Assembly: GCA_903918375.1 (NCBI GenBank)
Contig: CAIXED010000012.1
Coordinates: 1 to 64,000 of the forward strand
DNA: 64,000 nt
Direction of reading: 5' to 3'
Source of the DNA: an uncultured Pseudomonadota bacterium
Lineage (GTDB): Bacteria; Pseudomonadota; Gammaproteobacteria; Methylococcales; Methylomonadaceae
The notes under the pieces are model-generated. The model was not told the DNA's origin and did not search any database. It saw only the letters and a program-made list of their open reading frames with translations. This document shows positions 39,665 through 53,077 of this stretch, piece by piece. The stretch's first letter is position 1. The number at the start of each line of letters is the position of its first letter. Position numbers and translations under genes: made by a program.

Positions 39665-42600
39665 CGGTTCAGCCCCACGGCTGTGGGGAACGCCCTAAAA
39701 CGTCAATCTTTGTGACCAAACCATTCGGTTCAGCCCCACGGCTGTGGGGAACGCCCTGTAATGCAAGTAGTGACTGGGCTACGAGACGGTTCAGCCCCAC
39801 GGCTGTGGGGAACGCTCAGCACTAGCTTTCTAAGTGGATTTCCTGTTCGGTTCAGCCCCACGGCTGTGGGGAACGCAAGCGATGCTCGATTTTGGCAAAG
39901 TGACTCAGCGGTTCAGCCCCACGGCTGTGGGGAACGCGGCTCACTGGTACGCGGCTATGCGTTCAACGCCGGTTCAGCCCCACGGCTGTGGGGAACGCGG
40001 ACAGTTAATGCATCACGATAATCCAGTTAGCGGTTCAGCCCCACGGCTGTGGGGAACGCTTTCTTTTTTTTAGCAACAACGTCCATATCGTCGGTTCAGC
40101 CCCACGGCTGTGGGGAACGCCGCCGCACCAAACGCCGCGCGAGTTTGCGGGTCGGTTCAGCCCCACGGCTGTGGGGAACGCTTACAAGTTTTGCTTTATC
40201 TATACAAGCAAATCGGTTCAGCCCCACGGCTGTGGGGAACGCATGCTTGCATCAAGCGTTATGATCGACCGCATACGGTTCAGCCCCACGGCTGTGGGGA
40301 ACGCATATATTGAACAAACTCAATACCATATTATGACGGTTCAGCCCCACGGCTGTGGGGAACGCATTCCAAGAATTACGGTTGACAAGCTTTTCTTCGG
40401 TTCAGCCCCACGGCTGTGGGGAACGCTTTAAGATTCGCTTCCCAAGCAAAAGCCATTGCGGTTCAGCCCCACGGCTGTGGGGAACGCCAGCATGGTTTTT
40501 CCAAAAGACGAAACCACGCCGGTTCAGCCCCACGGCTGTGGGGAACGCACGCCGCCAAAATCAAGTGTAACTCGTTCGTTCGGTTCAGCCCCACGGCTGT
40601 GGGGAACGCTATTTACAGCACGACAATTGAATTTAAGGTTACGGTTCAGCCCCACGGCTGTGGGGAACGCTTCTTTGCTCCACTTGGCAATATTGCAACC
40701 AGCGGTTCAGCCCCACGGCTGTGGGGAACGCTAACCATCGTATAGCGCGATCAATAAATCCGCCGGTTCAGCCCCACGGCTGTGGGGAACGCATCCACCT
40801 TGTCTTTAATTGCTTGTGAAGTGGCGGTTCAGCCCCACGGCTGTGGGGAACGCCAGCATGGTTTTTCCAAAAGACGAAACCACGCCGGTTCAGCCCCACG
40901 GCTGTGGGGAACGCGATTCAACGGTATCGAATGACAATTCCGGCTGCGGTTCAGCCCCACGGCTGTGGGGAACGCGAATAGCGTGCTGATTTGCACCGTT
41001 TAGCGATACGGTTCAGCCCCACGGCTGTGGGGAACGCGATTGTTTCAATGGGTTGGCGCAGGTGACGTTCGGTTCAGCCCCACGGCTGTGGGGAACGCTA
41101 ACCACCGCCCAAACCCGCTCATCCAACAACCGGTTCAGCCCCACGGCTGTGGGGAACGCAACGGTTTGATAACCCACCCATTCAGAAATGTCGGTTCAGC
41201 CCCACGGCTGTGGGGAACGCGGTTGCCGCCAGTGCCAACGACTCCCGGGATTACGGTTCAGCCCCACGGCTGTGGGGAACGCGTTAACCGGAGTAACTGC
41301 ATAGCGCCATCAGGCGGTTCAGCCCCACGGCTGTGGGGAACGCCTCTGATTAAAGTCAGAAAGGAGGTGTTTTCGCGGTTCAGCCCCACGGCTGTGGGGA
41401 ACGCCTGATAAAACTTTTTCAATTACAGCAGGAACTCCGGTTCAGCCCCACGGCTGTGGGGAACGCAAGATTAAAAACAATGTCAAACTTTTTTTTGTCG
41501 GTTCAGCCCCACGGCTGTGGGGAACGCTTATCCTTCATCATTTGGAGTAAATGCTAATACGGTTCAGCCCCACGGCTGTGGGGAACGCTGGAGAAATTAA
41601 CATGAGTTATACAAAAGGGCCGGTTCAGCCCCACGGCTGTGGGGAACGCTGTTGGTTGCTTTTCTTTAGTCGGCTATATGGCGGTTCAGCCCCACGGCTG
41701 TGGGGAACGCCACCGCTGCTACAGGTACAACGGGTTCTTGTGCGGTTCAGCCCCACGGCTGTGGGGAACGCAATTATTTCGGTAACTGCAAATACAACAT
41801 ATACGGTTCAGCCCCACGGCTGTGGGGAACGCTTCAGAGAACGCAACTTCCATTGTGCGCTGACCGGTTCAGCCCCACGGCTGTGGGGAACGCCGCCGCC
41901 GGACTGATCGAGCTTGACTAACAGTCGGTTCAGCCCCACGGCTGTGGGGAACGCAAATCATCATTGCTGTTGACCGCTCTAAACCCCGGTTCAGCCCCAC
42001 GGCTGTGGGGAACGCAATAACATTTACACAAAACCCAACCGCAACGCCGGTTCAGCCCCACGGCTGTGGGGAACGCACCGAAACCGAGCCAGCCACGTAT
42101 TCATAGGGCGGTTCAGCCCCACGGCTGTGGGGAACGCTTATCCTTCATCATTTGGAGTAAATGCTAGTTCGGTTCAGCCCCACGGCTGTGGGGAACGCTA
42201 ATGAGCTAACAGCAATCACAGTACATATAGCGGTTCAGCCCCACGGCTGTGGGGAACGCAACATCAGCAAAACAAGATACAGGTAATACATCGGTTCAGC
42301 CCCACGGCTGTGGGGAACGCCTATGCCAAGAAATTACGACACGACAAATAACCGGTTCAGCCCCACGGCTGTGGGGAACGCATTAAGTACTAACTGGGCG
42401 ACATTTTTCACAGCGGTTCAGCCCCACGGCTGTGGGGAACGCTTAATTTGCGAATCTGTAGCCATTGCGCGACCCGGTTCAGCCCCACGGCTGTGGGGAA
42501 CGCGGAACACAAACAGCCACTTTAAATACGTGCGCCGGTTCAGCCCCACGGCTGTGGGGAACGCTTTAAATAAGGCATTTCATCAATTTGATGTTGCGGT

Positions 42601-42930
42601 TCAGCCCCACGGCTGTGGGGAACGCCTGAAATTAAATTAACTTGCCCAGTTGTCGAACGGTTCAGCCCCACGGCTGTGGGGAACGCTGATGCCATATGGA
42701 GCGGAACAGGAAATGGAACGGTTCAGCCCCACGGCTGTGGGGAACGCGAGATAAAGCGTGTTAATCATGTCAGTAATGTCGGTTCAGCCCCACGGCTGTG
42801 GGGAACGCCCATCAATTACAAGGCTTTGCGGTTGATAATGCGGTTCAGCCCCACGGCTGTGGGGAACGCGGTTGTTACTCGGTTTGTGCTGGTCATTTTG
42901 GCGGTTCAGCCCCACGGCTGTGGGGAACGC
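39665..42930 (-). CRISPR. Type I-E CRISPR array, 54 repeats and 53 spacers
   Basis: The repeat on the plus strand is a 29-mer beginning CGGTTCAGCCCC and ending GGGGAACGC. On the minus strand it begins GCGTTCCCCACAG and ends CTGAACCG, the orientation of type I-E repeats, with a 6-bp CCCCAC/GTGGGG stem and 4-nt loop. Repeat starts run from 39665 to 42902; I read all 54 copies as identical, including the one furthest from the leader. Forty-nine spacers are 32 nt and four are 33 nt (those beginning at 40243, 40976, 41221 and 41405). One spacer occurs twice (40488-40519 and 40854-40885), and another pair (41528-41559 and 42138-42169) differs at two positions only. The array is transcribed on the minus strand from the leader at 42931-43008. 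Reading frames across it are repeat artefacts. Confidence 0.98.
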
Positions 42931-46961: not shown

Positions 46962-47546
46962 TTAGTCAGTGTTTTTGGGTAATGCGGTGAAATAATCGGT
47001 TGCCCAACGTACAGCTAGGCGATCTTTGGGGTTGCGGTAATCAGCAATTTGGTTGAACTCTCGATGCCAGTGAGCAATGTCGTAGGCCAACGAAACCACA
47101 TTAACGTTGCAGTCTAGCAAGTGAATCGCCCGAAGAACGCGGCGATAAAAGTCCTCGGGAGAGGTGCTTTTTTGCAATTGTTGAAAGCGCAATTCACTCA
47201 TGGGGGCTTTGCTTTTACCGTCAACAGGCGTTGCCAGTTGTTCGGCAAAGCTGGCATATCTAACCGCAACCTCAGCCGATTTCTTGCTGAGGTTAATGCG
47301 GCTTGCCGTTTGTTTATTGGCTTTAACATGGGCAACCGCACCTGCAATGCTGGCTTTGGTCAATAGAGGGGTTTTTTCCGACCATTCGGTTAACGGTTTC
47401 ATCCATTCCAAGAAATGAAAAAACGCATCGGTAAGAAGAACATCTTCTGGGCTATCGGCTCGCCGTAACCGTGCGCGATCACCTCGGTTATCGTCTAACC
47501 ACGTATGCCATTGCTGTAATAGTTGACCAAAGGTTATTTCGCTCAT
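46962..47546 (-). CDS. cse2: Cascade small subunit Cse2
   Basis: Helical small subunit of 194 residues, present twice in Cascade, that stabilises the displaced strand. It is assigned by position between cse1 and cas7, by length, and by the all-helical pattern with LRRADSPEDVLLTDAFFHFL and the C-terminal DIAHWHREFN. It overlaps cse1 by four bases. Sequence conservation in this family is low, so position weighs strongly. Confidence 0.9.
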   Translation of the reverse strand: MSEITFGQLLQQWHTWLDDNRGDRARLRRADSPEDVLLTDAFFHFLEWMKPLTEWSEKTPLLTKASIAGAVAHVKANKQTASRINLSKKSAEVAVRYASFAEQLATPVDGKSKAPMSELRFQQLQKSTSPEDFYRRVLRAIHLLDCNVNVVSLAYDIAHWHREFNQIADYRNPKDRLAVRWATDYFTALPKNTD

Positions 47547-49120
47547 GATGCCTCCTGCTCTGGCTTAGCTCTTGCTTTAAGGTTTTTGATGGTTTTATTA
47601 CTGTGAAACTTTTTGCCTAAATTGTTTTTGGCAAGGATGATGCGTTTTAAGTCCAAATCTTCGGGTGTGGCCGCCAAGGTAGCGTTTTCAAAAACCGCGA
47701 ATAGCTGTTTTTTCAGCGTTTCAAACCAGTGGGAATAAATCCCACTGGGTGCTTGCCCTGTATCAGCGGGTAACGCTGCGAGCTGTTCCAAAATCAAGTA
47801 AAAATCGGCTTCTGTGGCTTGCCAAAATTGCGCGTCGATTTGGCTCATGTCACCTTTGGCATCTTCGGGGCGTCGAAACCAAGCCGCTTTGACTTCACTG
47901 CGTAACAGTTTGACGGCTTCTTTGGCGGCATCGATTAACTCTTTTCCCCAACGAGTGAGATTAGTTCGCTGAACATCACTCAGGTAATACACGGGAAACC
48001 GCGATTCATACCAGCAACGGGCTTTCATGTTGTCCATGTCATATCCAAAGCACCACAACCCAGCTTTTCCACGATCCGATAACTGTCGGCCGCGTTCTTG
48101 GTTATAAAACTGCACCACGCTAGCGGCTTTGTCACCGGTATCTTCATCCTGCATTGCTAAGCCTAGCCAATGCCGATAGCCTAAACCGCCCTGTTGACCT
48201 TTCAGCGACAACGGAAAATTGACTTTTTTCGGGTCGAAACGATACGGCGTTAAAGGATGCACCCAAGCACCGTCATAGTTAGTACCGTAGTTTTTGGTTT
48301 TAAAACCTTGATAAAGCTCGGCAGCGGGTTTACCGCAGACATCGCAGTCGGCATCTTGAGTTTTATCGGTCAATCGAATACGGCGTGGCATCCCCCAATA
48401 GGCGTGTAACGGATGGACATCGACCGGTGTGGTGATCTGGCCTTTATCCGATAACCGAGTTTTTCCGAGCCACGGTAAAACATGTGCGTCTAGCGTCTTT
48501 GCTGTTTCAATTTCTTCCTGATTCTGCACGTTGAGCCAGAGTTTTTGCCACAAGGTGCTGGTGGCAGCTTTGGGAATAATCAGTGTAGTTAATGGGCCGC
48601 CGCCGCGTAAGCCAACCCGATGACCGACACCACCTGATGGTGCGTTGGTTTGCAAGGTAAACAATGCGGCTGCTGTGCAGCTAGGGCATAGTTGGTTAAT
48701 GGTGTCGCGTTTGATGAAATGGTCGAGGTTGTCTTTAATGGTTTTACCGCCCGGTGCTTCGATAAATAACGCGGCAATGGTTTTGTTTTCGCCATCGATT
48801 AAATCAAAGTCTTGCAAAAAAGCCGCGCCTTGAGGATTTTCCAGCTCAAAGGCAAAAGCCAGTTGTTGTAACTGGGCTTCTAGTTCAGTAGCTGCGGGCG
48901 GTTCTTGCCAGTATTCGTCCCATTGATCTTCGTCTTCCGGCGCAAATGCGGTTTGCAATAAACCAATGAGTAACTGATACAAAGCACCCTGAAAGTCTGG
49001 GCGCGGTGCAGCAATCTCAACCACAGGGTTATCGATTTCGGCAATTTGCCACGGTGCAATGACATCGAGTTGATGGTTTTGACGGATGACCGGTATCCAG
49101 TGGTCGTTTATTAGGTTCAC
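47543..49120 (-). CDS. cse1: Cascade large subunit Cse1 (Cas8e)
   Basis: Large subunit of 525 residues that recognises the PAM and recruits Cas3. The family start NLINDHWIPVIRQN is reached from the GTG at 49120, which has AAGGAG five bases upstream; the longer frame to 49282 is not supported. A zinc-type Cys pair pattern (CPSCTAAALF and CDVCGKPAAELY) lies in the middle. It is preceded by a 40-residue membrane-peptide frame (49149-49271) and a promoter (49301-49329), and it overlaps cse2 by four bases. Confidence 0.93.
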   Translation of the reverse strand: MNLINDHWIPVIRQNHQLDVIAPWQIAEIDNPVVEIAAPRPDFQGALYQLLIGLLQTAFAPEDEDQWDEYWQEPPAATELEAQLQQLAFAFELENPQGAAFLQDFDLIDGENKTIAALFIEAPGGKTIKDNLDHFIKRDTINQLCPSCTAAALFTLQTNAPSGGVGHRVGLRGGGPLTTLIIPKAATSTLWQKLWLNVQNQEEIETAKTLDAHVLPWLGKTRLSDKGQITTPVDVHPLHAYWGMPRRIRLTDKTQDADCDVCGKPAAELYQGFKTKNYGTNYDGAWVHPLTPYRFDPKKVNFPLSLKGQQGGLGYRHWLGLAMQDEDTGDKAASVVQFYNQERGRQLSDRGKAGLWCFGYDMDNMKARCWYESRFPVYYLSDVQRTNLTRWGKELIDAAKEAVKLLRSEVKAAWFRRPEDAKGDMSQIDAQFWQATEADFYLILEQLAALPADTGQAPSGIYSHWFETLKKQLFAVFENATLAATPEDLDLKRIILAKNNLGKKFHSNKTIKNLKARAKPEQEAS

Positions 49121-49148
49121 AGCGTCTCCTTGACCGTGTGGTCGTGAA

Positions 49149-49271
49149 TTAAATCTTAATTGCGATAATGATAGCCAGCACAAGTACGAGCAAAAGCGCC
49201 ATTGAGATAACGGCAAGAGGCGCAGGCGAAAAGGAATTAAGCGCTTCAATAATGCCTTTAATGTGCTCCAT
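49149..49271 (-). CDS. 40-residue single-pass membrane peptide, first frame of the cas operon (novel)
   Basis: Not previously annotated and short. The frame begins ATG at 49271 and ends TAA at 49149-49151, 28 nt before the cse1 start. The peptide begins MEHIKGIIEALNSFSPAP and ends in a long hydrophobic helix (AVISMALLLVLVLAIIIAIK). It has a charged N-terminal helix, one membrane span and a terminal Lys-Ile, the profile of type I toxin peptides or small regulatory membrane peptides. It lies about 23 nt behind the predicted start of the cse1 operon transcript, so it would be the first gene expressed. The ribosome site (GGGGC) is weak. I recognise no family. It could also be a chance frame, but random sequence rarely gives so clean a segment. 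Confidence 0.5.
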   Translation of the reverse strand: MEHIKGIIEALNSFSPAPLAVISMALLLVLVLAIIIAIKI

Positions 49272-49300
49272 GACTGCCCCATATCGCAAAAGATGCGGCA

Positions 49301-49329
49301 ATAATAGTGCGCTAAATTTATTTTGTAAA
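49301..49329 (-). promoter_or_regulatory. Predicted promoter of the cse1 operon (Pcas)
   Basis: On the minus strand: -35 TTTACA (49329-49324), 17-bp spacer, -10 TATTAT (49306-49301), each one mismatch from the sigma-70 consensus. Transcription would start near 49294, about 23 nt before the 40-residue frame. The -35 box overlaps the AAG at 49328-49330, the putative PAM of the mini-crRNA target. Confidence 0.65.
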
Positions 49330-49348
49330 GCTTCTTTGTCTTTTATAA
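49328..49348 (+). promoter_or_regulatory. Putative Cascade target: AAG PAM plus 18-nt match to the cas-embedded spacer
   Basis: AAG at 49328-49330 is followed by CTTCTTTGTCTTTTATAA (49331-49348), identical to the first 18 nt of the spacer at 49419-49451. From position 19 the two diverge (three chance matches at most). AAG is the canonical type I-E PAM. A seed-only match would permit binding without efficient Cas3 cleavage, as in CreR/CreA regulation. Confidence 0.75.
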
Positions 49349-49389
49349 ATTTTTGTTTAGGTATGCCTGCTTCTCGATTAAACTAATCA

Positions 49390-49480
49390 ACGTTCCCCAA
49401 ATGATTGGCGATGAACCGCTTCTTTGTCTTTTATAAGAGAAGCATGTCAATACGTTCCCCGTACCCACGGGGCCTTAACC
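49390..49480 (+). ncRNA. Cas-embedded mini-CRISPR, candidate creR/creA-like regulatory crRNA
   Basis: Two degenerate type I-E repeats, 62 nt apart, on the plus strand. The first (49390-49418) keeps the CGTTCCCC start and the TGAACCG 3' handle, the part that enters Cascade; it matches the array repeat at 21 of 29 positions. The second (49452-49480) keeps the hairpin, as CCCCGT/ACGGGG with a 4-nt loop, through paired changes; it matches at 18 of 29 positions before gaps. Between them lies a 33-nt spacer-like segment (49419-49451). The orientation is opposite to the main array. The last six bases overlap the cas3 stop region. A promoter reading into it was not clear (weak candidates at 49353-49384). 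Confidence 0.75.
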
Positions 49481-52213
49481 TATAAACCCTTGCTGGCTAG
49501 AATAAATCTGTTGCTCATTTTCTAATGGCAACACCTCTAGCCAGCGCAATGCGGGCTGCTCCTGTTTGAGCGCATCAATCGCTATTTGCCATTGAGCAGG
49601 TATTTGTTGCTTGACTTTGCGCCAATCTGCTTCAGGCAACTTAATCGTGCTTAATGCCCAAGCAAAGTGCTCACCGACGGCATAGGGTTTTAGTCGCCCA
49701 CCATCCATCGTTGCCAGCGCGACTGAAATGGTTTCTTGTTCAGTCAGTCGAGTGGGGATTCTTGTTTCTTCGTCCCAGTCACCGCTATTGCGTGTATAAC
49801 CTTTATCCAGTTTTAGCGCGTTTAAGTCAGCCATGCTTTCGCGACTTTTATTGGCGCCTTCGGCATCAAATGATTGCCGTTCTAATGCCTCCGGGTAAAT
49901 TGCCCATTCCGAATAAACACTCTCAATCAGGTATCTGGCATCTTCCGGCATAGTCCACTGGCCTTTATCCAGCAAGGTTTTAGCGGTAAGCCACAGTTGA
50001 CCGATGTGCGGATATACCCCCTGCGTACCTGCATGATCGGGCTTTAACCATTTTTCATCTGCATCATCTCTTGGCTCTGGTGTGTATAAGTACAAGATCG
50101 GTGCACCGCGTTGGTCTTGGGCATTTTCTGTGGTGATGGGATTACCTTGTTGGTCTCGAATATGACGACGCAAACGACCTGCACGTTGAATGATTAAATC
50201 AATGGGCGCTAGGTCGCTGACCATTACATCGAGGTCTAAATCTAAAGACTGTTCAACTACTTGGGTGGCAATCAGAATCTGGCCTTGACGCTGTTGTGTG
50301 GTCGAGTGCTTACCAAATTTTGCCAACACATCGGATTCAATAGCCTGCCGGTCAATCATGGCAAAGCGGCTGTGAAATAAGGTGATTTGTTCAGCGGGCA
50401 CCCCTGCTTCCCGCAAGGCCCGATAGGCTTGTCGAGCAGATTTAACGGTATTGCGTATCCAGCAAACACAGTGTTTGGCGCTTATGCTGGCCTGTATGAT
50501 ATCCATAACAGCCTGTTCGCTCTCCAGACGATGGATTTGTACGGTGCGCTTAACTTCTTCACGGGTATCGATGATTTGTTCGATTTTATCCATCGCGCTA
50601 GCAGGCGTATGAGTCACCAAGGGATAATCGGATTCACTATTCAGTATTGGGCTTGCTTGATTCAAGCCACGATGAAACGCATCCACCAAATTTTTCCGCA
50701 TAGTTTGCGGCAAGGTGGCCGATAGCAAAATGACACTACCACCTTGGCGGGCATGAACCTCCAACAAAGCATCTAGCAGCTTTTGCATGTAGCTATCGTA
50801 AGCGTGTACTTCATCGACCAGCAATACTTTTCGCCCAAGACCCAGTAAGCGTAAGGATTGGTGCCTAGCAGGCAAAACCGCTAGCAGTGCTTGATCCAAA
50901 GTGCCGACCCCAACATCAGCTAATAAAGCTTTTTTGCGACTATCGGCTAGCCAAGCATTGCAGTAAGCAGTGGCACTGAGTTCTTGATCAGACTCATGTT
51001 GGCTGGTTTGATAATCGGCATCAGCTTGATTGTGCATACTAATAGCAACCGATTGCTGAAAGGCTTCAGACAGTTGTCTGGCACCATGGGCCAGCACCAA
51101 CGAAGGCTGGCTATCGGCTTGATAAAACTGCCGATACATTTTGCTAAGACGTTGATACATGGCGTTAGTGGTTGCCATAGTCGGTAATGCGATATAAAGC
51201 CCATCAGCCAAACCTTGTGACATTAACCGCTGAGCCAGAACCAACGCTGCCTCGGTTTTGCCCGCTCCCGTCACATCTTCCAAAATGAACAGTTGAGGTT
51301 GATTGGGTAGTGTTTCGTTAGCAGCGTAATACTGCAGCGGAGCTGGGGTCTTGATGAAGTTAAATAAGCAATCAATACCTTGAAAGGCTTGAACTTTGAC
51401 AGATTGCGGTAAAGCCTGAATGGCTTTTTTCGCACTGGGTAAAGCGTCAGTTTCCCAATAATCATCTAGGTTTTTCACTTGACTGCAATAAGCAAAATGC
51501 TCTTGATTAGAACCTAACCAATCGGCTAACACCGCAACCCCTGCCATTTGCCAAGAAATTGGTTTAAGTTGTTTGACAAGCGATTTGTCTTGTAATGGCT
51601 GAAAATCAAAATCATCCAACAGTAAATCGGCAACGTCCTGAATAAACGTCAGTGTCGCGACTTTATCTTCGGATTGAAAAAAGTTGTTGATCGACAAAGA
51701 TTTTTTAGGCGGCATACCGTGATGACCGGTGACGATTTCCAGCCAAGGCTGCCAGTGTTTGCAGCTAATTGATTGACTGGTTTTTTGGCTTAAACCTTCT
51801 GAAATTTGGTCTTGTAGTTCATCCCAAATGCAAAACCCCAAACTGTCGTGACGCTCTTCGTAGCACATACGAGGATTGGCCTTAACCAAATTGTCTGATA
51901 AATCGGTTTTCAAGCCCTGAAACGCTCGAGCAAATTTACCCAAGTCATGTATTGCCAAGCAAAATACTAACCAAGTTTTTAGCCATTTTGGTTCAACACC
52001 TAATTGAGCCGATAAATTATCGATAAAAGTTTTTTTGGTTTCAAAAAGAAAATAGCCTACCGCAGCCACATCCAAACAGTGGTAAGGCAATAAATGATAA
52101 CTAGCTTTGCTGTCATCATTTGACTTCGCCTTTCCCCAATATCTGTAATACATAGCGATAACAGACTCCAAGGTTGGGCCTTCCTTAGAGTCAAAGCGAA
52201 CTTGATTATTCAT
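49475..52213 (-). CDS. cas3: CRISPR-associated helicase-nuclease Cas3, type I-E
   Basis: Degrades DNA marked by Cascade. The protein has about 912 residues. The N-terminal HD nuclease has YHCLDVAAVGYFL and LAIHDLGKFARAFQ. The helicase has Walker A DVTGAGKTEAALVLAQRLM, the DEVH box (KVLLVDEVHAYDSYM), LSATLPQTM, and motif VI (IIQRAGRLRRH). The start is placed at the ATG at 52213, with AAAAGGTGG upstream; the TTG at 52234 is less likely. It reads in the same direction as the other cas genes but is separated from cse1 by the 354-bp regulatory gap. The 289-bp gap upstream (52214-52502) is AT-rich and no promoter stands out. Confidence 0.95.
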   Translation of the reverse strand: MNNQVRFDSKEGPTLESVIAMYYRYWGKAKSNDDSKASYHLLPYHCLDVAAVGYFLFETKKTFIDNLSAQLGVEPKWLKTWLVFCLAIHDLGKFARAFQGLKTDLSDNLVKANPRMCYEERHDSLGFCIWDELQDQISEGLSQKTSQSISCKHWQPWLEIVTGHHGMPPKKSLSINNFFQSEDKVATLTFIQDVADLLLDDFDFQPLQDKSLVKQLKPISWQMAGVAVLADWLGSNQEHFAYCSQVKNLDDYWETDALPSAKKAIQALPQSVKVQAFQGIDCLFNFIKTPAPLQYYAANETLPNQPQLFILEDVTGAGKTEAALVLAQRLMSQGLADGLYIALPTMATTNAMYQRLSKMYRQFYQADSQPSLVLAHGARQLSEAFQQSVAISMHNQADADYQTSQHESDQELSATAYCNAWLADSRKKALLADVGVGTLDQALLAVLPARHQSLRLLGLGRKVLLVDEVHAYDSYMQKLLDALLEVHARQGGSVILLSATLPQTMRKNLVDAFHRGLNQASPILNSESDYPLVTHTPASAMDKIEQIIDTREEVKRTVQIHRLESEQAVMDIIQASISAKHCVCWIRNTVKSARQAYRALREAGVPAEQITLFHSRFAMIDRQAIESDVLAKFGKHSTTQQRQGQILIATQVVEQSLDLDLDVMVSDLAPIDLIIQRAGRLRRHIRDQQGNPITTENAQDQRGAPILYLYTPEPRDDADEKWLKPDHAGTQGVYPHIGQLWLTAKTLLDKGQWTMPEDARYLIESVYSEWAIYPEALERQSFDAEGANKSRESMADLNALKLDKGYTRNSGDWDEETRIPTRLTEQETISVALATMDGGRLKPYAVGEHFAWALSTIKLPEADWRKVKQQIPAQWQIAIDALKQEQPALRWLEVLPLENEQQIYSSQQGFIG

Positions 52214-52502: not shown

Positions 52503-52799
52503 ATGCCACAATCGCAGATTGCCGCCAAATCCATATCTGTAAAACTTGACTCGGAGTTCCACGCCCGCGTTGAAAATATCGCAGAAGCTCGTCATCGCTC
52601 TACTCACTGGGTAATGCGCGAAGCAATTACTCAATACGTTGAACGTGAAGAAAAGCGCGAAGCATTCCGACAGGATACACTCAGGGCTTGGGAGGAATAT
52701 CAGGAAACAGGCTTACACGCTACTGCAACAGAGGTCGATAAATGGCTTGCTAGTTGGGGTACTGACAATGAACTGTCTACCCCTGTATGCCACAAGTAA
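52503..52799 (+). CDS. Ribbon-helix-helix antitoxin (CopG/ParD type)
   Basis: Antitoxin of 98 residues. The N-terminal ribbon-helix-helix reads KSISVKLDSEFHARVENIAE then RHRSTHWVMREAITQYVERE, the DNA-binding part. The C-terminal half (about 55-98) should wrap the toxin. It overlaps the toxin gene by 13 bases, as in typical toxin-antitoxin operons. The pair sits directly behind the cas3 start, divergent from it, where it may stabilise the CRISPR locus. Confidence 0.85.
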   Translation: MPQSQIAAKSISVKLDSEFHARVENIAEARHRSTHWVMREAITQYVEREEKREAFRQDTLRAWEEYQETGLHATATEVDKWLASWGTDNELSTPVCHK

Positions 52800-53077
52800 G
52801 CTATTCGCCAGCGGCAATCCGTGACTTAGAAAGATTGCGGGAGTTCTTGCTTCCGAAGAATCAGGTTGCGGCGCAACGTGCCGGCAATACGATCATAAAA
52901 TCATTACAAGTGCTTGGACAACAGCCCCAAATTGGACGCAAAATTGAGGATATGCCAGACCAATACCGAGAATGGTTAATCGATTTTGGCGATAGCGGCT
53001 ATGTGGCACGTTATTACTTCGATGATAAGCAAATCACTATTTTGGCAGTGCGCCATCAAAAAGAGATGGGCTACTAA
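52787..53077 (+). CDS. RelE/ParE-family toxin
   Basis: Toxin of 96 residues. It matches the RelE/ParE fold: SPAAIRDLERLREFLLPKN, AGNTIIKSLQVLGQQPQIGR, then the beta-strand-rich GYVARYYFDDKQITILAVRH. Whether it cuts ribosome-bound mRNA or inhibits gyrase cannot be told; the ERLREFL and RKIEDMP patterns resemble ParE-like plasmid-stabilisation proteins. It is translated with its antitoxin. Confidence 0.85.
   Translation: MPQVSYSPAAIRDLERLREFLLPKNQVAAQRAGNTIIKSLQVLGQQPQIGRKIEDMPDQYREWLIDFGDSGYVARYYFDDKQITILAVRHQKEMGY

What the first reader, a model, noticed from the sequence alone, without database searches (positions are those of the whole stretch)
49328..49480. Cas-embedded mini-crRNA with a seed-only target at the cas promoter (CreR/CreA-like autoregulation)
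Seen: two degenerate type I-E repeats (49390-49418 and 49452-49480) flank one 33-nt spacer on the strand opposite to the main array. The first 18 spacer nt (CTTCTTTGTCTTTTATAA) recur exactly at 49331-49348, immediately after AAG (the canonical I-E PAM). Identity stops at position 19. The two repeats keep different functional parts: the first keeps the TGAACCG 5' handle, the second keeps the hairpin through paired substitutions. Known: CreR and CreA RNAs are cas-embedded crRNA-like guides whose partial spacer matches let Cascade repress a promoter without Cas3 cutting. Inference: this locus encodes such a guide that represses its own cas operon.
Basis: partly seen in the sequence, partly recalled or inferred. 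Interest (0 to 1): 0.97.

Follow-up and report, generated by a model that had tools for sequence, protein, structure and literature searches.

The report
CRISPR guide that represses CRISPR genes
A tiny built-in CRISPR guide next to this bacterium's CRISPR genes very probably steers the CRISPR complex to shut down the promoter of those same genes and of a small membrane peptide that may be a poison released if CRISPR fails; guides of this type are known, while this peptide family and the self-folding guide look new.

Summary
The 18-mer occurs only twice in the 2.79-Mb genome (Methylomonas, by inference), both here. Of 154 regions upstream of cas8e, 44 (32 distinct spacers) have the same layout. 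Seeds differ between lineages, yet each matches its own AAG-flanked site. Pairing fades after nt 15, and positions 6 and 12, which do not pair in type I guides, match at chance level. This indicates a working, co-evolving Cascade guide. The PAM overlaps the -35 of a TTTACA-17-TATTAT promoter. Relatives of the peptide are under purifying selection. In 237 family genomes all 18 strong matches lie just upstream of cas8e; the 17 testable ones all have the guide. Citrobacter rodentium has a proven translated, Cascade-repressed toxin in the same gap. Best reading: Cascade plus mini-crRNA represses its own operon (CreR-like), probably with a CreT-like peptide built in. Each spacer's distal half also tends to pair with its own seed. 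The guide is a new member of a known kind; peptide and self-folding spacer make it a variant. Expression and toxicity are untested.

The parts
49390..49418 (+). R1, first degenerate type I-E repeat; supplies the crRNA 5' handle ATGAACCG
   Evidence: 21/29 to the main repeat, handle 7/8; the array of relative L010 ends in the same GATGAACCG (sequence)
49419..49451 (+). 33-nt spacer of the mini-crRNA; nt 1-18 identical to the target, nt 18-24 pair with nt 1-7 (one G-U) in the predicted self-hairpin
49452..49480 (+). R2, second degenerate repeat; keeps the Cas6e-type hairpin, handle decayed; overlaps the cas3 stop codon (antisense)
   Evidence: 18/29, stem with two paired substitutions; cas3 ORF ends at 49475
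49328..49330 (+). AAG PAM; its complement CTT supplies the first TT of the -35 box
49331..49348 (+). 18-nt seed target upstream of the promoter of the small ORF-cas8e operon
49301..49329 (-). sigma70-like promoter TTTACA-17-TATTAT (10/12)
   Evidence: (2 promoter-like sites in 501 bases, 0.9 expected in shuffles)
49149..49271 (-). small ORF, 40 aa, one long hydrophobic helix, candidate CreT-like peptide; first gene of the operon
   Evidence: aligns with the family (itself a seed of both models); pN/pS 0-0.32 among relatives, window ORF not in that test; hydropathy; single-sequence AlphaFold helix 2-12 and 16-39, pLDDT 90
47543..49120 (-). cas8e (cse1), start GTG 49120; second gene of the repressed operon
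   Evidence: TIGR02547 E 3e-113, start
46962..47546 (-). cse2 (cas11)
   Evidence: TIGR02548
45883..46950 (-). cas7e
   Evidence: TIGR01869
45094..45870 (-). cas5e
   Evidence: TIGR01868
44213..45097 (-). cas6e, expected processor of the mini-crRNA
   Evidence: TIGR01907
43292..44203 (-). cas1e
   Evidence: TIGR03638
43009..43347 (-). cas2e
   Evidence: TIGR01873
49475..52234 (-). cas3, upstream of the mini-array
   Evidence: NF007248 5.7e-158 (527.5 bits, below that model's cut-off of 569), cas3_core 2.6e-70, cas3_HD 2.7e-22
39665..42930 (-). main CRISPR array, 54 identical repeats

Best explanation
The + strand mini-array (49390-49480) is transcribed and cut by Cas6e at both degenerate repeats into a crRNA-like RNA that loads Cascade. 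It pairs through at most 18 nt with the AAG-flanked site at 49331-49348, so Cascade sits over the upstream edge and the -35 of the promoter at 49329-49301 without licensing Cas3. This represses the operon small ORF - cas8e - cse2 - cas7 - cas5 - cas6e - cas1 - cas2, giving negative feedback on Cascade itself. When Cascade is scarce, saturated by array crRNAs or blocked by an anti-CRISPR, the operon is released together with the membrane peptide, which is probably a CreT-like toxin or alarm. The seed-distal hairpin probably weakens the guide so that it yields to array crRNAs. Shown by comparison: a co-evolving, Cascade-type guide-target pair at this promoter, and a coding, guide-linked peptide family. 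Inferred: transcription, processing, repression, co-transcription, toxicity and the role of the hairpin.
For: Exact match and PAM. 44 of 154 regions have such a pair, 32 distinct spacers. Of 70 repeat-spacer-repeat units, 38 have an AAG site at >=12/15; all other 63 trinucleotides together give 9; shuffled spacers give 0.06 AAG and 7.0 sites in all per pass. Profile over 26 distinct pairs selected only on 1-5 and 7-11: pos 6 7/26, 12 7/26, 13 26/26, 14 25/26, 15 22/26, 16 12/26, then near chance. Own pairs average 13.7/15, cross pairs 4.9, with 1% of cross pairs at 12 or more. The -35 begins 1-2 nt from the PAM's CTT in 17 of 27 distinct antisense targets. Cas genes present. In E. coli as few as 5 bp suffice for Cascade association and >18 bp are needed for interference and priming (PMC5904413 abstract); the window has 18.
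Against: No RNA or expression data. In E. coli, off-target Cascade binding did not affect local expression (section heading of PMC5904413), so binding alone need not repress. No + strand promoter able to transcribe R1 passed the consensus scan (its only + site is at 49475). 110 of 154 regions, among them the close relative L003 (88% Cas8e), have no such pair, so it is dispensable. Two loci with repeat-like units show no recognisable target (L042, L044). cas3 read-through could also transcribe cas8e.
Confidence: 0.8

Rival explanations
1. CreTA-like addiction as the main function: the mini-crRNA is an antitoxin (CreA), the 40-aa membrane peptide is a translated toxin (CreT), and cas autoregulation is a by-product of the shared promoter.
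For: Same gap and same antisense guide upstream of a small translated toxin ORF proven in Citrobacter rodentium type I-E (PMC12055562 section 13). Peptide and guide in 70 family loci: both 18, peptide only 0, guide only 2, neither 50 (nominal Fisher 8e-15). In 237 family genomes all 18 peptide matches at E<1e-8 lie beside cas8e. 10 of 10 peptide-bearing long loci examined have near full-length Cascade genes (L003, L005, L006 and L008 without peptide do too, so this is weak). L144 has a ParE-family toxin (PF05016, 6e-12) in the peptide's place with no antitoxin gene in the stretch read. HicBA lies there in L007, L011, L013, L014 (Pfam run on the L011 pair).
Against: Toxicity not tested; no toxin family matched. 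The peptide would be made whenever the cas operon is. In L052, L112, L113 and L120 the target precedes cas8e with no small ORF of 28 aa or more listed between them. Homology to the C. rodentium ORF was not tested. The peptide model was seeded from guide-bearing loci; of five hits that were neither seeds nor duplicates (L025, L027, L084, L139, L140) four have a pair. 18/0 rests on a scan widened after looking (14/4 with the first). Loci are related.
Confidence: 0.45
2. Pure CreR autoregulation: the peptide is a non-toxic leader or a membrane accessory of Cascade.
For: Pairs without any listed small ORF exist in front of cas8e (L052, L112, L113, L120). E. coli K-12 has a similar pair by a looser scan. 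Reviews report CreR autorepression in types I-B, I-E and V-A (PMC13131331) and I and V-A (PMC12737573) (passages).
Against: Guide-peptide association in the family, and a published toxin at the equivalent place.
Confidence: 0.4
3. A decayed CRISPR or an accidental self-targeting spacer without function.
For: Repeats are degenerate, the spacer only partly matches, and L042 and L044 have repeat-like units without a recognised target.
Against: Seeds and targets stay matched while both change, with free drift mainly at positions 6 and 12; the precursor folds better than all 200 shuffles (z -3.18).
Confidence: 0.03
4. The repeated CTTCTTTG...AAGAAGC sequences are operators for a DNA-binding protein, not guide and target.
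For: Inverted repeats within spacers and AAGCTT at the target.
Against: The sequences differ between lineages; AAG and the free sixth and twelfth bases are Cascade features; one copy follows a repeat handle.
Confidence: 0.03

Closest known systems
Citrobacter rodentium type I-E CreTA (PMC12055562, section 13 read whole)
   Same: Gap between cas3 and casA/cas8e; opposite-strand crRNA-like guide upstream; partial target at the promoter of a small translated ORF; active when Cascade is compromised
   Different: PAM ATG there, AAG here; 96-bp ORF reported without homology to annotated sequences, here a recognisable 35-44-aa membrane-peptide family (homology between the two not tested); toxicity proven there, not here
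CreR, cas-regulating RNAs (Liu et al. 2023 recalled, not held; statements seen in PMC13131331 and PMC12737573)
   Same: crRNA-like RNA with limited complementarity to the cas promoter, predicted autorepression
   Different: PMC12737573 calls CreR generally not coupled to a toxin gene; here a conserved small gene precedes cas8e; no seed-distal hairpin was mentioned in the passages I saw
Cas-embedded mini-arrays with partial matches to cas8 or cargo promoters (Shmakov et al. 2023, recalled, not held)
   Same: As I recall the abstract: two repeat-like sequences, spacer partly matching cas8 or cargo (toxin-antitoxin) promoters, common in type I
   Different: I could not check whether this lineage, the peptide or the hairpin is in it
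Haloarchaeal CreTA (PMC8501985: section 14 and passages; PMC9458426: abstract)
   Same: Two diverged repeats giving 5' handle and 3' handle; pairing at 1-5 and 7-11 with 6 and 12 not needed
   Different: Studied in haloarchaea with RNA toxins; pairing here extends to 15-18

Membership tests
CreR | crRNA-like RNA encoded by a mini-CRISPR with two repeats in the cas locus | tested here: met
   R1-spacer-R2 with handle and hairpin; sequence level only
CreR | Partial spacer match with a correct PAM at the cognate cas promoter | tested here: met
   AAG + 18 nt abutting TTTACA-17-TATTAT upstream of small ORF-cas8e
CreR | Cascade-dependent repression of cas genes | not testable with these tools
   needs expression data
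CreR | Generally no coupled toxin gene (PMC12737573) | tested here: inconclusive
   a conserved small membrane-peptide gene is coupled; its toxicity is unknown
CreTA | Two diverged repeats that keep 5' handle and 3' hairpin | tested here: met
CreTA | First repeat more diverged than the second (PMC9458426 abstract) | tested here: inconclusive
   counted from the match strings: first 21 nt R1 14/21, R2 15/21; last 8 nt R1 7/8, R2 3/8
CreTA | Seed-limited target at the promoter of a toxin gene | tested here: inconclusive
   target at the promoter of the small ORF is met; that the ORF is a toxin is not shown
CreTA | Toxin released and growth impaired on Cascade loss | not testable with these tools
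   needs mutants
Type I-E CRISPR-Cas | Full Cascade gene set able to use the guide | tested here: met
   cas3, cas8e, cse2, cas7, cas5, cas6e, cas1, cas2

The most novel reading that the evidence does not exclude
A conserved, CRISPR-bound family of 35-44-aa membrane peptides is a fail-safe toxin written into the cas8e operon itself. Cascade, guided by a self-folding mini-crRNA whose distal half hides its own seed, keeps operon and toxin low. The hairpin makes the guide the weakest competitor for Cascade, so anti-CRISPRs or loss of Cascade release Cas proteins and toxin together.
Probability: 0.35. Interest if true: 0.82.

Novelty: new variant of a known kind. Interest (0 to 1): 0.64.

Why it matters
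It shows, at family scale, Cascade guides evolving under selection in place: pairing kept at 1-5, 7-11 and 13-15, free at 6 and 12, and not exceeding, in the window, the 18 bp above which E. coli interference begins. It links such a guide to a peptide family that matched no model above its cut-off in the three libraries searched. If the peptide is a toxin, CRISPR immunity in these methanotrophs polices its own loss, and the self-hairpin gives a testable knob for how a cell senses free Cascade.

Tried and rejected
Chance identity was rejected. Protein operator and decayed CRISPR are disfavoured (see rivals). Known family for the peptide: Pfam gave OppC_N at 0.0089 (window) and 0.083 (a relative), both under the curated cut-off and read as a generic transmembrane match; NCBIfam gave a sorting-signal match at 0.13, under its cut-off; PHROGs nothing better than 0.086. 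PADLOC was not searched. Copies of the peptide outside CRISPR: none convincing. In the class sample (369 genomes) the only hit below 5e-4 was the window's own; the other 11 (E 5e-4 to 0.008) cover only part of the model or lie in long or stop-broken frames. A first scan timed out and was rewritten. The folding test of the hairpin is modest: 7 of 27 spacers reach p 0.05 singly and the window's own is p 0.10; the own-versus-cross permutation is stronger. L089: its hit in scan 1 was read as chance and left out of the profile. L025 has a peptide (2e-8) but no pair was found.

Full report
WHAT IS THERE. The window carries a type I-E locus on the - strand: cas3, gap, cas8e, cse2, cas7, cas5, cas6e, cas1, cas2 and an array of 54 identical repeats at 39665-42930. 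The genome is 2.79 Mb, 99.8% complete. It shares a genus label with genomes whose contig lengths equal those of Methylomonas koyamae R-45383 (31,000) and Methylomonas sp. LW13 (5,233,523), so I place it in Methylomonas by inference. In the cas3-cas8e gap, on the + strand, lie R1 (49390-49418), a 33-nt spacer (49419-49451) and R2 (49452-49480). The first 18 spacer nt recur after AAG at 49331-49348; that 18-mer is found only at these two places in the genome. R2 overlaps the cas3 stop codon. R2's identity alone (18/29) is matched or beaten by three other sites in the window; its place and stem make the case.

Downstream of the target is the better of two promoter-like sites in 49100-49600, TTTACA-17-TATTAT at 49329-49301 on the - strand; the PAM's complement CTT supplies the first TT of the -35. 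Its first gene is not cas8e but a 40-aa ORF, 49271-49149, MEHIKGIIEALNSFSPAPLAVISMALLLVLVLAIIIAIKI. cas8e starts 28 nt after it, at 49120. The one terminator-like site in that stretch lies inside the ORF, with 0.6 expected by chance. The longer cas8e frame (start 49282) is an upstream extension of the reading frame.

COMPARISON. I took 53 of the 57 loci (L031, L053, L054 and L057 left out), the window, and 100 stretches fetched upstream of Cse1 matches: 154 regions, some short. Several fetched stretches are the same contigs as loci; duplicates are collapsed where I say distinct. Scan 1 asked for a handle-like 7-mer, a seed equal at positions 1-5 and 7-11, and one of four PAMs. It rang in 38 of 154 regions against 7 of 1,540 shuffled regions, and all sites listed had AAG. 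Scan 2 asked for R1, R2, a handle with at most 2 mismatches and at least 12/15 paired positions: 70 units in 54 regions; 38 AAG sites, 9 for all other 63 trinucleotides together; shuffled spacers gave 0.06 AAG sites and 7.0 in all per pass. Scan 2 was widened after I saw by eye that three peptide-bearing loci had been missed. The union is 44 regions and 32 distinct spacers. Of the 16 regions with a unit but no pair, most units do not look like repeats (by eye); four do: L089 (15/15 site, but after AAA), L117 (11/15 after AAG), and L042 and L044, where I recognise no target. The last two are against me.

THE CASCADE FINGERPRINT. In the 26 distinct pairs of scan 1 (L089 dropped), positions not used for selection read: 6, 7/26; 12, 7/26; 13, 26/26; 14, 25/26; 15, 22/26; 16, 12/26; 17, 9/26; 18, 10/26; 19 to 32 between 1 and 10. 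Positions 6 and 12 are those reported not to pair in type I guides (PMC8501985 passages). Own pairs score 13.7/15 on average, cross pairs 4.9; the 1% of cross pairs at 12 or more are mostly near relatives. The guides therefore co-evolve with their targets under the pairing rules of Cascade. The window matches at 6, 12 and 18 too, which suggests a young or renewed pair (inference). E. coli Cascade needs as few as 5 bp to associate and more than 18 bp for interference or priming (PMC5904413 abstract).

GEOMETRY. In 27 distinct loci with an antisense-strand target, the best-scoring promoter's -35 begins 1-2 nt from the CTT in 17, 10-13 nt in 8 and 23 nt in 2, as if phased by helical turns; mean promoter score 9.4 against 7.7 shuffled. 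The CTT itself favours offset 1, so this is suggestive only. In five distinct loci (L011 with its copy L013, L014, L037, L052, L113) the target lies on the sense strand.

THE SMALL PEPTIDE. A 14-seed HMM, seeded from guide-bearing loci, finds the family with E<1e-12 in 24 regions, all 24 with a pair; these are the seeds and their duplicates or near copies, so this is partly by construction. Other hits are L025, L027, L139, L140 and (0.61) L084; the last four have pairs by scan 2, L025 has none. Relatives of the gene are coding: pN/pS 0.06-0.32 in nine overlapping pairs and no nonsynonymous change in a tenth; the window ORF differs in length and was not in this test. Each has a hydrophobic 17-residue stretch with mean hydropathy 2.15-3.32 (14 of 14 seeds); the window peptide is modelled as helices 2-12 and 16-39. 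In 237 genomes of the family, 18 matches at E<1e-8 all lie within about 550 nt upstream of a cas8e match and none elsewhere; five further matches are weak (E 0.001-0.009). Seventeen of the 18 were in hand and have the guide. The 18th, in G255, lies 160 nt from a contig end, so its guide cannot be judged; the ORF looks interrupted near its start by an inverted-repeat insertion, and its cas8e contains a run of N. In 369 class genomes no other convincing copy was seen. I had 73 of the 94 family match rows (21 not fetched); 70 were long enough (three under 1,200 nt dropped): peptide+guide 18, peptide only 0, guide only 2, neither 50 (nominal Fisher 8e-15). Counting L089 as guide-bearing would make it 18/0/3/49. 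One search printed 17/1/2/50 because L071, found by scan 1, had been left off the list; L088 was labelled peptide-bearing by eye. With scan 1 alone the 18 peptide loci split 14 and 4 (L084, L088, L139, L140 missed). The two guide-only loci have a ParE-family toxin (L144, PF05016 6e-12) and a DUF3800 protein (L146) behind the target. HicB and HicA genes lie between peptide and cas8e in L007, L011, L013 and L014 (Pfam on L011). Shared descent makes the p-value nominal.

THE SELF-FOLDING SPACER. The window precursor folds with three hairpins, z -3.18, none of 200 shuffles as stable; the spacer hairpin pairs nt 1-7 with 18-24. Across 27 distinct spacers, 21 have at least 4 seed-distal pairs against 803 of 2,700 shuffles; combined p is 2e-7, 7 of 27 reach 0.05 singly, the window's own is 0.10. 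Of 53 spacers in the window's main array, 17% have p of 0.1 or less. Across 32, a guide's seed pairs with its own distal part better than with that of other loci (4.58 against 3.47; 0 of 5,000 permutations); 16 Methylomonadaceae loci 5.31 against 3.9 (0 of 5,000); 15 others, L014 left out as a near copy, 3.77 against 3.25 (p 0.024). The region just past the target match thus appears selected to cover the seed. I infer a weakened, easily displaced guide; this is untested.

KNOWN SYSTEMS. CreR autorepression by partial promoter match is reported for types I-B, I-E and V-A (passages in PMC13131331 and PMC12737573). I recall but could not open Liu et al. 2023 and Shmakov et al. 2023 (by DOI; literature searches). 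The nearest tested system that I read is the CreTA of Citrobacter rodentium in the same cas3/casA gap: opposite-strand guide, target at the promoter of a 96-bp ORF that must be translated to be toxic and acts when Cascade is compromised (PMC12055562, section 13 read whole). E. coli K-12 has a similar unit, found with looser limits: spacer from 2884510, AAG target at 2884356, first 16 nt with mismatches at 6 and 9.

VERDICT. Guide and target: real, functional by evolutionary evidence, a new member of the CreR/CreA kind. What makes it a variant is the conserved membrane peptide, found in this sample only beside cas8e, sharing the repressed operon, and the self-complementary spacer. Whether it acts as CreR, CreTA or both needs experiments.

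Noticed in passing
window 52503-53077 (+): A CopG/ParD-like antitoxin (RHH_1 5.6e-10) and ParE-family toxin (PF05016 3.5e-15) pair just beyond the cas3 start.
   Followed up: partly
window 40458-40548 and 40824-40914; 41526-41544 and 42136-42154: Duplicated spacer sequence inside the main array: one whole repeat-spacer-repeat unit identical, and a 19-nt stretch repeated.
   Followed up: no
window 49368-49375 (+): TGCTTCTC, complementary to the spacer's distal arm GAGAAGCA, lies between target and R1; no AAG precedes it.
   Followed up: no
L177 about 1857-2072 (E. coli K-12 NC_000913.3 about 2884356-2884571): A degenerate repeat-spacer-repeat unit in the cas3-casA gap with a partial AAG-flanked target upstream of casA; by eye the CTT overlaps TTGCAG-17-TATTGT.
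   Followed up: partly
L144 (re-oriented copy, 1466-1966): Guide with matched target in front of a ParE-family toxin gene, no antitoxin gene in the stretch read, directly before cas8e: a possible Cascade-repressed protein toxin.
   Followed up: partly
L039, L043, L051: Brenneria and Pectobacterium loci have guide-target pairs with spacers of 20-21 nt, other small ORFs before cas8e, and a self-complementary arm that by eye runs into R2.
   Followed up: no
L178 (G255 contig C117, 1-460): A peptide gene copy that looks interrupted near its start by an inverted-repeat insertion, close to a contig end.
   Followed up: partly
L053, L054, L057: Three copies of a truncated Cascade segment (cas8e, cas7, cas6e partial) in different contigs of Methylovulum psychrotolerans.
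   Followed up: no
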